Below, in pieces: positions 5,374-10,867 of a stretch of DNA of 64,000 nucleotides. The DNA comes from Conchocele bisecta (taxonomy: Eukaryota; Mollusca; Bivalvia; Lucinida; Thyasiridae): contig CM055271.1 in NCBI GenBank assembly GCA_029237695.1, forward strand, positions 29,790,695-29,854,694, given 5' to 3'. The notes under the pieces are model-generated. The model ran no database searches. It was not told the DNA's origin and was given only the letters and a program-made list of their open reading frames with translations. The translations under genes were made by a program, and so were the position numbers. Position 1 is the first letter of the stretch, and every line of letters starts with the position of its first letter.

Positions 5374-5385
5374 TATCTCCCCCCT
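5374..5385 (-). promoter_or_regulatory. Polypurine tract of the Gmr1-like element
   Basis: The sequence next to the 3' LTR reads aggggggagata on the minus strand. Its position and purine content fit the primer for plus-strand DNA synthesis. Confidence 0.7.
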
Positions 5386-5443
5386 AAACAAAAAGTGTTT
5401 ACACTTTCGTGCACAATCGCGAGACACGTCGGCATAGCTGAAT

Positions 5444-5957
5444 CTACCCCGATATCCTGCTCAGGTAGTCTGCCCCCAGATTGTCGGCCCCTTTTATCGC
5501 AACAATACGCATTCGGTAAGGTTGCAGTATCAAGGCCCACCTCATTAGTCGGGAATTTGCAACCTTGGCTTTGTTTAGGTAAACCAACGGTTGGTGGTCC
5601 GTTTCTAGGATGAATTCCCCCCCAAACAAATAACGGTGGAACTTCTCGACCCCCCACACGACTGCCAGACACTCCTTCTCAACTACCGAATAATTGCATT
5701 CCCTTGGCAACACCTTTTTGCTGGCATACGCTATCGGAAGTGGGATACCATCCTGCTCTTGTAACAGTATTGCCCCTAACCCAATGTCGGAAGCATCCGT
5801 CCTGAGCACGAAAGGTTTGTCTTGAATAATAATGGTCAATAATCCCTTGAGGGTAACGAATGCTTTCTGTTGGGGTGCCCCCCCAGTTGACCTTGTTTGG
5901 TTGACCTTTCTTAGTAAGGTCAATTAGCGGGCTCGCTATCTCTGCGAAGTTGGGCAT
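5444..5957 (-). pseudogene. RNase H region of the Gmr1-like pol
   Basis: The frame at 5444-5923 carries a Ty3/gypsy RNase H: TDASDIGLGAILLQ near the start, a YSVVEKECLAVVWG motif with the catalytic glutamate, then TDHQPLVYL and a terminal GADYLSRISG. An overlapping frame up to 5957 holds the end of the RT connection (PNFAEIASPLIDLTKK), so at least one frameshift separates RT from RNase H. The domain is the last in pol: its stop lies 70 bp from the polypurine tract. It would degrade the RNA strand of the RNA/DNA hybrid during reverse transcription. Confidence 0.9.
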
Positions 5958-6865
5958 GAACTTCCTATAGAACCCGGCTAACCCCAGGAAAGCCCTGACC
6001 TCCTTCTTTGTCTCAGGGACATTAGCTTCATGATCTGCCTTGACCTTTTAGGGGTGGGCCCTTAGTTCCTTCTTACTGCTGATAGTATGGCCCAGGCACT
6101 CAAGTTGCCTGTACCCAATGCTGCACTTGGAGGGTTTTGCCGTTAGATTTGCATCGGACAATCGGGAGAGGACTTCACTCAGAGCTCTCAGGTGGTTGTT
6201 TGCCACGTATGGGAGAATATCAAGATGTCATCAACAAAGCTGTCTGCATTGTGGACCCCCTTTAATACTTTCCTCATGAGTCTACAGAAAGTGGCCTGTG
6301 CCGTGACCATTCCAAAAGGCATGACCTTGAACTGGAATAGACCCTGGGGTGCCTCGAAAGCGGAATATTCCCTGGAATTCTCATCCAATGGACCTGCCAG
6401 TAGCCCTTACTCAGGTCCACTTTGAAAAGTAGCTATGTCCCGCCAACTTAGAGAACATCTCTTCAATATTTGGCATTGGTTCCGCATCAAAACACAGTGA
6501 CTTTGTTAAGTTGCCGGAAATCAATGCAGAATCGGAGCCCCCCGTCCTTTTTCCTAACCAGAATTATTGGGGATGAGTAGGGTGATTTTGAAGGTTCTAT
6601 GACACCTAGCTTCAGCATCTCCTCTACTTCCTGGCTGACTGTTTCCCTGACCTTAAATGATAGGTACCCCCTAATTCTTAATGGGTCTTGCGTTGACAAC
6701 TTTTATCTCATGTTTCACTATATGGGTGTGTCCTGGTGCGTCCCTCAGGACATGGGTGACTTCCCGTAAGATCTCTTTGACTTGCGTCTTTTGTTTCTTG
6801 CCTAAATCAGGCGACAGGTCAACTTTGCTCTCCGTATCGGACTCTAATTCCCTGGGACATAACAT
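5958..6865 (-). pseudogene. Reverse transcriptase of the Gmr1-like pol (broken)
   Basis: The frames at 6671-6865, 6487-6699 and 6188-6388 follow one another as a Ty3/gypsy RT. They show the N-terminal GHTHIVKHEIKV block, the VRKKDGGLRFCIDFRQLN motif, then FKVMPFGM and the catalytic box FVDD, a variant of YVDD. At least two frame changes occur, around 6480 and 6400. The zone at 5958-6187 holds the thumb/connection in shifted frames. The domain lies downstream of integrase, which is the opposite of most Ty3/gypsy elements. Confidence 0.88.
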
Positions 6866-6892
6866 GTTTCTTCGGCACTACACCCACTTGGA

Positions 6893-8710: not shown

Positions 8711-8844
8711 ACAGAAATGTCCTTTGTTTTCCCCTGGTTGTTCCGTATTTTGCCATCTACCTCTACCTCTGCCTCTAGTGTGCCTTCCACTTCTACCTCT
8801 ATTTCTACCTCTGTACCGACCTCTCTGTTCTTTATCTGCAAAAC

Positions 8845-10198
8845 TTACATGTTTCTCTTCCTCGACTGCTGCTGCTTGTAAGCTGAGGACCGGTCACGCT
8901 TAGGACAATCGTAGGACATGTGACCTTCTTTGCCACGATGGTAACATGCCCCGCGATGTCTATCGTAGCCGTTCCTGCTGGTACTTCTGTCGTAACTACC
9001 TCTACTCGGGCTTCTATCATAACTACCCCTACTTGGGCTTCTATATTGGTACCTGTCCCTATCTCGACTCCTATCTCTGGATCGATTATCTGCACTACTT
9101 ACCTTGCGCCTCTGGTTATCTACTGACCTGTACTCAGTTCTGTTGCTAGTACTGTTCCTCTGAACTACATACTTGCTACCTCCTCTAGCTTCTGCAAAGT
9201 AATCTGCCTGAACCGCCATCTGATCTATCGAGTCAAATGTTTTCTCTTTGAGAAATAAGTAGAGCTCACGACTGCATATACTTAACATCTGATCTCTGAT
9301 CATGTAGTCTAGTACTCCTTCATATGTTCTATTCACCTTACCTAACTCAAACCATCTATCTAAATAGTTCTTTGACCGACTGACATATTGCACAAATGAT
9401 TCACTGTGATCAGGTTTGGTGTTTTTTGAACATGCGTCTGAACCTATCTTCCGTTAGATCAAAACATTTCAACAATGCGGATTTCAACTTATCATAGTCA
9501 GAGCATCATCAATAGGTAGTCTAGAATATACATCTAATGCTTTGCCCTTCAATAAAGCACTCAAGTGTAGTGACCACTTATCTCTCCCCCACCTTTGAAT
9601 TGCTGCGTACCTCTCAAATCTAGCTAAGTAGCTATCCATGTTGTCATTATTCTGATCAAAATGTGGCAGCTTCGGACCGAATGCTCTGCCATTGTCCCTA
9701 TCATGTCTATCTTCATCTACTACTCCACCCCTTTCTACCTTTGCCATGGTGCTTAGTATCTAGTTCTCGCAATTTGAATTCTAGAGCTAACTGTGCTTCA
9801 TTGGCATCTAATCTATCTTTCCCCATCTGTCACTCAACCTCTTTAGCTAACTGCTCAGCATCTAACCTATCCTTCTCAGCCTGTCGCTCAACCTCCTTAG
9901 CTAACTGCTCAGCGTCTAACCTATCTTTCTCCATCTGTCGCTCAACTGCTAACTTATCTTTCTCAGCCTGTCGCTCAACCTCCTTAGCTAACTGCTCAGC
10001 ATCTAACCTATCTTTATCCATCTGTCGCTCAACCTCTTTAGCCAACCGCTCAGCATCTAACCTATCTTTCTCAGACTGCCTAGCCTCTAGTCTTTCCTGT
10101 CTTTCTCTCTCCTGCTCTTCCCTTACAAAGGCCCTTAACTCTGAATCTGCTAGCCCTAAGCTTTTGCCTATCTCCATTAGCTCCTTAATGGACGACAT
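8845..10198 (-). pseudogene. gag of the Gmr1-like element (broken)
   Basis: The likely start is the minus-strand ATG at 10198-10196 (MSSIKELMEIGKSLGL). An N-terminal E/K/R-rich coiled coil follows, interrupted by a TGA at 9830-9832 where the neighbouring repeats read CGA (arginine). Capsid-like sequence lies at 9484-9747 (PKLPHFDQNND, DSYLARFERYA, LLKGKALDVYSRL), and the C-terminus at 8845-9393 is arginine/serine/tyrosine-rich with a degenerate zinc knuckle, CYHRGKEGHMSYDC. That motif has Arg where the second Cys of CX2CX4HX4C should be. At least three breaks separate the parts. The leader between it and the primer site (10199-10850) shows nothing else. Confidence 0.85.
9786..10078 (-). repeat. 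54-bp tandem repeat encoding the gag coiled coil
   Basis: About five copies of a 54-bp unit, one of them shortened, encode an 18-residue period of the type KDRLDAEQLAKEVERQ. The high charge and leucine/valine spacing predict a long alpha-helical coiled coil. Copies are very similar, so the array is recent or homogenised. Confidence 0.85.
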
Positions 10199-10850
10199 TG
10201 TCACTCTCAACTCAATTCCGGATTATCGATTTACACGCTTTACCCGACGGTACACAAGGTCTCTAGCACTCAAATCACTTGGTGATTTGTGCGAGTCTCT
10301 TGCTTCACGTCTATAAGGTTAAGGTAAATCAATCCGGTCTCTACTCCTAACGACGGTATAAGTTTCTCAATTCTGGTAAGTCAATCCGGTATATGTATGG
10401 TCTAATGTAATGGTATATTTACAATTCCCCCTCTATGGTACTGGACACAAAAAAAATGGGGACTGGTTATAGACACCTGGCAGGATATAGTATTGTTCAT
10501 ACACAATATAATAGTGATGGTAATCTCGCCTGAGATGTAGAAGTGTCTAGTGATAGCCTAGAACACCCGCTGTGCCATCATCACAGGGAGGTACTGTTGG
10601 CAAATCAAAAATTACAATGACCCTTACATCGATTATCTCACAAGATCGTCTCAACTCTATACTTCTGTACCTAGGTAGTCAAATCATGTATGTGGTGATG
10701 TATTAGTGCCTAAGTGTTGGAGGACATCTTACATTAACTCCCAAGGCAAACAAATACAAGATTGAATTTTGACGACGCTAGGGGTACAGCTATTCTAGCC
10801 TCCTTACTTCAACTGTTTTGAAGAAACTGATTATAAAAGAGGAAACAAAC

Positions 10851-10866
10851 CCCACTTCTGACACCA
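10851..10866 (-). promoter_or_regulatory. Primer binding site, tRNA-Leu type
   Basis: One base inside the 5' LTR the + strand reads cccacttctgacacca, which equals the 3' end of animal tRNA-Leu(CAA) including CCA. On the element's strand this is tggtgtcagaagtggg, a 16-base match to the primer tRNA. Confidence 0.85.
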
Positions 10867-10867
10867 T

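What the first reader, a model, noticed from the sequence alone, without database searches (positions are those of the whole stretch)
5374..10867. Ty3/gypsy-type retrotransposon with integrase before reverse transcriptase
Reading the minus strand, the order is gag, DTG protease (8447-8710), integrase with HHCC and DDE motifs (6893-8398), RT with FVDD (5958-6865), then RNase H (5444-5957), with only 70 bp left before the polypurine tract. Protein motifs are gypsy-like, but the order is copia-like. This is the hallmark of the Gmr1-like group, first described in deuterostomes. A well-bounded copy in what looks like a mollusc extends or confirms its range, and the domain shuffle is unusual.
Basis: partly seen in the sequence, partly recalled or inferred. 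Interest (0 to 1): 0.85.

Follow-up and report, generated by a model that had tools for sequence, protein, structure and literature searches.

The report
Integrase-first gypsy retrotransposon in a clam
A jumping gene in a clam genome carries its enzymes in an unusual order, belongs to a known but little-studied group, has very long end repeats, and shares its genome with many shortened relatives that lost the copying enzyme but kept the inserting enzyme.

Summary
In detail: on the minus strand the order is gag, protease, integrase, RT, RNase H, with gypsy-type domains. It lies antisense in intron 1 of an HSPA12-like gene of a bivalve, inferred to be Conchocele bisecta. The integrase is not nested: a 96%-identical relative has everything in one open frame, and all 91 of 229 listed relatives with both motif types have integrase first. 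Best filed as a new Gmr1-like member; no Gmr1 reference was in the trees. Unforeseen: of the 20 best-scoring loci in the own genome, 11 lack RT and nearly all RNase H through two shared deletions, yet keep protease and integrase. One junction occurs at 147 places, the undeleted site at 168. Shared integrase variants are synonymous only, 9 to 0, and recombined among full and RT-less copies. Likely the RT-less copies are copied by, and recombine with, full ones; whether they supply integrase is open (single copies carry indels).

The parts
2833..2837 (.). target site duplication ATATC, left
2838..5373 (-). 3' LTR, 2536 bp, TGTCG...TGACA
   Evidence: blastn of left against right part: 97.2% over 2560 columns
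5376..5385 (-). polypurine tract AGGGGGGAGA, two bases before the LTR
   Evidence: read from sequence
5447..5923 (-). RNase H
   Evidence: Pfam RT_RNaseH E 3.4e-37
6051..6702 (-). reverse transcriptase, broken into pieces; FVDD in 6191-6406
   Evidence: Pfam RVT_1 E 1.9e-9 and 4.6e-4; pieces 86-100% identical in L001
6896..7729 (-). integrase core and C-terminal part
   Evidence: Pfam rve E 1.8e-6 and SH3_Tf2-1 E 7.1e-6, both under cut-off; 3685 relatives at E up to 0.001
7733..8440 (-). integrase N-terminal part with HHCC zinc finger
   Evidence: Pfam Integrase_H2C2 E 4e-21
8450..8893 (-). aspartic protease, DTG
   Evidence: Asp_protease_2 E 0.018; E 0.0019 in L001; both under cut-off
8848..9453 (-). 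gag: SCAN-like capsid part and CCHC knuckle
   Evidence: SCAN E 0.0033, zf-CCHC E 0.0042, both under cut-off; in L001 SCAN E 1.4e-4 (under cut-off), zf-CCHC E 4.6e-7 (above)
9484..9759 (-). gag, a piece nearer the N terminus
   Evidence: 97.6% identical in L001; no Pfam match
9830..10222 (-). start of gag with repeated charged (coiled-coil-like) units, 54-bp DNA period
10850..10866 (-). primer binding site TGGTGTCAGAAGTGGGG, one base after the 5' LTR (fits the 3' end of tRNA-Leu, recalled)
   Evidence: sequence
10868..13394 (-). 5' LTR, 2527 bp
13395..13399 (.). target site duplication ATATC, right
2538..2825 (+). exon 1 of the HSPA12-like host gene (end by protein alignment); the element lies in the following intron, its TSD starting 8 bp beyond the aligned exon end
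   Evidence: tblastn of P0237, P0239, P0252; further exons 26195-26413, 30969-31127, 53119-54165

Best explanation
A complete, fairly young copy of a Ty3/gypsy LTR retrotransposon of the integrase-first (Gmr1-like) kind, in a bivalve genome. It moves by the usual route: LTR-driven RNA, tRNA-primed reverse transcription in Gag particles, insertion by its own integrase with a 5-bp duplication (mechanism inferred from anatomy). The family has well over a hundred copies. Two RT-less subfamilies that keep protease and integrase have spread in the same genome; most likely they are copied by reverse transcriptase supplied by full-length copies in shared particles, and recombine with them by template switching (inferred).
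For: LTR pair, TSD, PBS, PPT; Pfam order; one open frame of 1476 aa with gag, PR, INT, RT and RH in L001, which matches the window at 95.9% over all its 5441 bp; 91 of 229 relatives have both motif types, all 91 INT first, and 32 of 32 by BLAST regions; integrase and RNase H trees both put the element inside that group, apart from Ty3 and the standard-order gypsy of the same window (supports 99/98 and 84/80); crossed alignment of the relative P0144 to Ty3; dN/dS 0.30 against L001 over 1290 codons; 139 scored copies in the own genome; two shared deletions in 11 of 20 loci; 147 deleted against 168 undeleted places; shared integrase variants 9 synonymous, 0 non-synonymous over 33 rows; all four combinations at 15 of 15 pairs of six variant sites over 32 rows.
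Against: The window copy is broken in pol. The SCAN-like match is under Pfam's cut-off. No Gmr1 reference was in the trees, the two standard-order rows sit on very long branches, and the RNase H split is only 84/80. dN/dS left out codons in stretches under 60% amino-acid identity, which lowers dN. Supply of RT in trans was not observed. All 12 junction-picked RT-less copies carry 1-9 indel events in the integrase core, one also a stop, and their private changes (18 non-synonymous, 9 synonymous) look nearly unconstrained. 21 of the 33 rows are not junction-picked; 19 of them were picked by integrase score, which biases against non-synonymous changes. Eight of the nine shared variants occur in more than one type, so selection inside the RT-less lineage is not shown.
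Confidence: 0.9

Rival explanations
1. The integrase block belongs to a second element nested in an ordinary gypsy element.
For: None beyond the unusual order itself.
Against: One LTR pair and one TSD bound everything; the same order in one open frame in L001 and in the 8 other undeleted loci; 91 of 91 listed relatives with both motif types have it.
Confidence: 0.01
2. It is a Ty1/copia element, which normally has this order.
For: Domain order.
Against: RVT_1, RT_RNaseH and Integrase_H2C2 match; RVT_2 and gag_pre-integrs, the copia models (recalled), were not reported for the ten window pieces up to E 0.1. The best solved relative of P0144 is Ty3, with crossed domains.
Confidence: 0.01
3. The RT-less copies are only passive deletion derivatives; their integrase is recognisable merely because they are young or keep being refreshed by recombination with full copies.
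For: Eight of nine shared variants occur in more than one type, four in types A, B and full; private changes in 12 junction-picked copies are 18 non-synonymous to 9 synonymous, and each of the 12 has 1-9 indel events in the integrase core; junction B shifts the frame (my reading); 2 of the 11 RT-less loci have a further deletion in gag (L067, L074).
Against: Junction A keeps the frame to the native stop in 6 of 8 loci; 0 shared non-synonymous changes among 6 in the junction-picked type-B copies.
Confidence: 0.75
4. The deletion junctions are artefacts of collapsed or chimeric assembly.
For: The assembly shows many 1-bp indels in these repeats; the C. bisecta assembly is PacBio CLR by Shasta, polished with short reads (PMC9993606 passage).
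Against: Junction B recurs at 147 places on many contigs with 0 for the reversed control pattern; within a type the junctions of the sampled loci agree and the LTR follows 100-140 bp on.
Confidence: 0.05

Closest known systems
Gmr1-like clade of Ty3/gypsy (Gmr1 of Gadus morhua; Goodwin and Poulter 2002, recalled and seen only as a citation)
   Same: Gypsy-type domains in the order PR-INT-RT-RH; SCAN-like gag part (weak match); one gag-pol frame of about 1500 aa (tetraodontiform Gmr 1506-1634 aa, PMC11117352 table passage; 1476 aa in L001).
   Different: LTRs of 2.5 kb and length 10.6 kb against 337-518 bp and 6.1-6.5 kb in tetraodontiform Gmr (PMC11117352); host a bivalve; abundant RT-less derivatives.
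Integrase-first predicted proteins of Ruditapes, Pinctada, Dreissena, Patiria, Anneissia, Diadema, Palaemon
   Same: Integrase 57-68% identical to the window piece and followed by RT.
   Different: Not described as elements in those records; LTRs not examined.
Ty3 of yeast (7q5b)
   Same: Homologous RT-RNase H and integrase (with P0144 as query).
   Different: Integrase after RNase H.
Non-autonomous LTR elements such as LARD, TRIM, TR-GAG, BARE-2 (recalled)
   Same: Internally deleted copies spread with help from full copies.
   Different: Those I recall lose all of pol, or gag; here only RT and nearly all of RNase H are lost and the integrase stays.

Membership tests
Gmr1-like Ty3/gypsy | integrase upstream of RT-RNase H, none downstream | tested here: met
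Gmr1-like Ty3/gypsy | gypsy-type RT, RNase H and integrase | tested here: met
   RVT_1, RT_RNaseH, Integrase_H2C2; Ty3 is the best solved relative of P0144
Gmr1-like Ty3/gypsy | RT, RNase H and integrase group with Gmr1 reference elements | not tested
   no Gmr1 reference sequence was reachable; RNase H and integrase do group with other integrase-first proteins
Gmr1-like Ty3/gypsy | SCAN-like C-terminal capsid in Gag (PMC4592553 passages) | tested here: inconclusive
   SCAN 17.6 bits in the window, 22.0 bits E 1.4e-4 in L001; Pfam cut-off 27
Gmr1-like Ty3/gypsy | gag and pol in one frame | tested here: met
   1476 aa frame in L001, matches from SCAN-like to RNase H; the window copy is broken
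Ty1/copia | copia-type RT (RVT_2) and gag_pre-integrs | tested here: not met
   no match up to E 0.1 for the ten pieces
LTR retrotransposon | LTR pair, TSD, PBS, PPT | tested here: met
   the tRNA identity of the PBS is recalled, not tested

The most novel reading that the evidence does not exclude
The integrase-first order makes RT-RNase H the last, separable module. In this clam the family has become a two-part system: full copies supply RT, while RT-less copies still make Gag, protease and integrase (in frame to the native stop in type A), and the two kinds share particles and recombine, with selection keeping gag-PR-INT functional in the RT-less copies too.
Probability: 0.15. Interest if true: 0.7.

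Novelty: new variant of a known kind. Interest (0 to 1): 0.5.

Why it matters
It gives a fully bounded integrase-first gypsy element in a mollusc. Such an element could not enter the de novo step of the main mollusc survey, which allowed LTRs of 80-1500 bp and built its trees from RT/RNase H alone (PMC6238403). It also offers a test case for what domain order does to a retrotransposon: with RT last, deletions that remove RT can leave Gag, protease and integrase translatable. Copies with one such junction (147 places) are here nearly as common as copies undeleted at that site (168 places).

Tried and rejected
A nested second element and a copia element were rejected (see rivals). A coding or nested element inside the long LTR was looked for: five LTR frames had no Pfam match; the only Rfam match up to E 0.5 in 2800-13450 was a Staphylococcus sRNA model at E 0.24 in the RNase H region; the longest inverted-repeat arms in the 3' LTR were 27 nt. 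IMG/VR held no relative by tblastn. Of 35 genome-contig hits, 34 were bacterial stretches matching parts of residues 11-174 only; the other is L001. Twenty 10-kb stretches of the own genome, two of them next to the window, held no match to LTR or internal part, too few to say anything. Integrase pN/pS for copies picked by integrase score (type A 0.158 without realignment, 0.031 realigned; full copies 0.057 and 0.052) is biased towards low pN, so 12 copies picked by junction alone were used instead (0.189). The count of type-A junctions and the count of LTR ends did not complete. Two bivalve papers listed for 'gmr1' (PMC10740791, PMC7804246) hold it only as a DOI string; the remaining papers listed with one to 13 hits on the term in unrelated topics were not opened.
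Full report
What was claimed and what is there. The domains are there, in that order, on the minus strand. The stretch is the internal region of a larger element. Comparing the two sides gave one direct repeat of about 2.5 kb: 2838-5373 and 10868-13394, 97.2% identical with gaps counted, 23 mismatches in 2508 aligned bases and 32 indel events. Read along the element, both start TGTCG and end TGACA, and they are flanked by ATATC on both sides. The primer site TGGTGTCAGAAGTGGGG begins one base after the 5' LTR, and the polypurine tract AGGGGGGAGA ends two bases before the 3' LTR. 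That the primer site fits tRNA-Leu is recalled. The element is 10,557 bp long.

Host and site. The window lies in a genome of 1,891,530,640 bases in 1196 contigs. A 385-residue frame at 53020-54174 has 1052 homologues at E up to 0.001; of the 120 listed, those named with an organism are bivalve proteins, most called HSP70 12A or 12B, at most 47% identical. Stretches at 2538-2825, 26195-26413, 30969-31127 and 53119-54165 match three such proteins in order. The target duplication starts 8 bp beyond the aligned end of exon 1, and the element is antisense to the gene. The closest relative of the element, L001, comes from a contig filed under a Thiodubiliella symbiont. The thyasirid clam Conchocele bisecta has a Thiodubiliella symbiont, a 1.9 Gb assembly in 17 pseudo-chromosomes, and 66.96% transposable elements (passages of PMC9993606). 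I infer that the host is C. bisecta and that L001 is host DNA in a symbiont assembly; no tool named the genome.

Is the order real? Four lines agree. (1) L001 matches the window over its whole 5441 bp at 95.9% and has one open frame of 1476 aa; five consecutive pieces of it give SCAN-like and Retrotrans_gag matches (both under Pfam's cut-off), zinc knuckle and a weak protease match, integrase zinc finger and core, integrase C-terminal part, then RVT_1 and RNase H. (2) Among the 229 proteins listed for two searches, 91 carry both integrase and RT motifs, all integrase first; 107 carry integrase only, 26 RT only, 5 neither. These lists were drawn by integrase and integrase-RT queries, so they are not a census. 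(3) P0144 matches Ty3 of yeast crosswise: its residues 3-290 fit Ty3 1159-1446 and its residues 375-800 fit Ty3 584-1008. (4) The same window holds a second gypsy element at 37457-44415 with the ordinary order (Pfam on its pieces).

Trees. Integrase and RNase H trees of 36 rows each (32 database proteins with both regions, window, L001, Ty3, the in-window standard-order gypsy) put window and L001 together (100/100 and 100/99) inside the integrase-first group, which is separated from the two standard-order rows at 99/98 and 84/80. The two standard-order rows have very long branches, and no Gmr1 reference was available. The RT itself, being broken, was not put in a tree. In an integrase tree of 31 rows with named hosts, the nearest rows are the unnamed proteins P0020 and P0032; bivalve, gastropod, echinoderm and crustacean rows are mixed.

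Condition and age. Against L001 the window copy has 25 coding indel events, 23 of them frame-breaking, and 72 coding mismatches. Of the 1-bp indels 18 of 22 lie in or next to same-base runs, and 22 of 25 between the LTRs, while 44% and 39% of bases lie in such runs. If the host is C. bisecta, its assembly was made from PacBio CLR reads and polished with short reads (PMC9993606), which would leave indels in repeats; slippage in nature is not excluded. dN/dS between window and L001 is 0.30 over 1290 codons (46 synonymous, 51 non-synonymous differences); codons in stretches under 60% amino-acid identity were left out, which lowers dN. LTR divergence of 0.92% would mean roughly 0.35 million years at the 1.3e-8 rate used in PMC8220671 (hand calculation; the rate is for another animal, and errors inflate the divergence).

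Copies in the same genome. The integrase piece found 139 scored copies at 91-100% identity, from 5171 first-look candidates. Loci were cut for the 20 best (one of them the window itself); each holds about 3.8 kb, from inside gag onwards in most, so the start of gag was not seen. Nine continue through RT and RNase H. In 8 loci element position 6693 is followed directly by 7920 (type A), in 3 loci 6764 by 7881 (type B); the LTR follows 100-140 bp further on (element position = 13394 - window position + 1). Integrase ends at 6499, so protease and integrase are kept, and RT and nearly all RNase H are gone. Two of the 11 RT-less loci (L067, L074) have a further deletion in gag. In type A the integrase frame runs on to the native stop in 6 of 8 loci; in type B the native frame is shifted (my reading). 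The LTR is visible for 1.1-1.2 kb in the RT-less loci before they end, so these copies have LTRs of more than 1 kb too. Genome-wide, the type-B junction occurs at 147 places and the undeleted site at 168, at up to 3 mismatches, with 0 for the reversed control. The type-A count did not complete.

Are the RT-less copies alive as coding elements? In 12 type-B copies picked by perfect junction match only, integrase changes shared by two or more copies are 6 synonymous and 0 non-synonymous; private ones are 9 and 18 (one copy covers only part of the region). Each of the 12 has 1-9 indel events in the integrase core and one has a stop. Over 33 rows of all types shared changes are 9 to 0, against 177 synonymous and 627 non-synonymous sites; under no constraint the chances would be about 1e-4 for 6 to 0 and 1e-6 for 9 to 0, but 19 of the 33 rows were picked by integrase score, which favours this result. 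So integrase seems conserved in the sequences that propagate, while single copies decay. Eight of the nine shared variants occur in more than one type, four in types A, B and full. At six of these sites over 32 rows all four combinations occur at 15 of 15 site pairs (within B 14 of 15, full 9 of 10, A 3 of 10). The types exchange sequence, presumably by template switching between co-packaged RNAs, and selection in full copies alone could explain the pattern. Whether RT-less copies contribute Gag and integrase is open.

What is known. Gmr1 is described as a gypsy lineage with copia-like integrase position (passages of PMC6238403, PMC2582038, PMC2774666). It was reported in crustaceans as the first protostome case (PMC3587641), in an annelid (PMC8220671), in frogs (PMC4131045) and in tetraodontiform fishes (PMC11117352). 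The mollusc survey PMC6238403 retrieved six known gypsy clades, Gmr1 not among them, plus 16 new ones; it used LTRs of 80-1500 bp and RT/RNase H trees. Paper searches gave no paper that, in the passages I read, reports a Gmr1-like element in a mollusc. Only listings and passages were seen, no supplements; not every listed paper was opened, and subscription papers are mostly not held. Integrase-first proteins from Ruditapes, Pinctada and Dreissena were already in public databases, and one from the snail Littorina has the integrase.

Verdict. A real Gmr1-like element, ordinary in kind but well delimited, with unusually long LTRs and with abundant RT-less, integrase-keeping derivatives. The last point is the surprising part and rests.

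Noticed in passing
37457-44415, minus strand: A second gypsy element with ordinary order (RT 41040-41708, RNase H 40816-41259, integrase 38936-40091) and flanking repeats at 37457-37789 and 44079-44415, 95.5% alike.
   Followed up: partly
2538-2825, 26195-26413, 30969-31127, 53119-54165, plus strand: Four exons of an HSPA12-like gene spanning most of the window; intron 1 holds the retrotransposon.
   Followed up: partly
21633-22651, minus strand: Transposase frames with DDE_3 and helix-turn-helix matches (Tc1/mariner-like, name recalled).
   Followed up: no
49584-51380, minus strand; 28280-28588, plus strand: Reverse transcriptase (RVT_1) fragments and a weak endonuclease match, LINE-like.
   Followed up: no
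L001:1-5441: A contig filed under a bacterial symbiont (Candidatus Thiodubiliella) carries an animal retrotransposon, so that assembly seems to hold host DNA.
   Followed up: partly
9804-10126: A 54-bp repeat in gag codes for repeated charged 18-residue units near the Gag N terminus.
   Followed up: no
PMC12314368 passage: A coral paper describes Copia by integrase followed by RT, citing the Gmr1 paper; integrase-first gypsy elements may be misfiled as Copia elsewhere (inference).
   Followed up: no
window 15-514: A run of 500 N near the start of the window.
   Followed up: no
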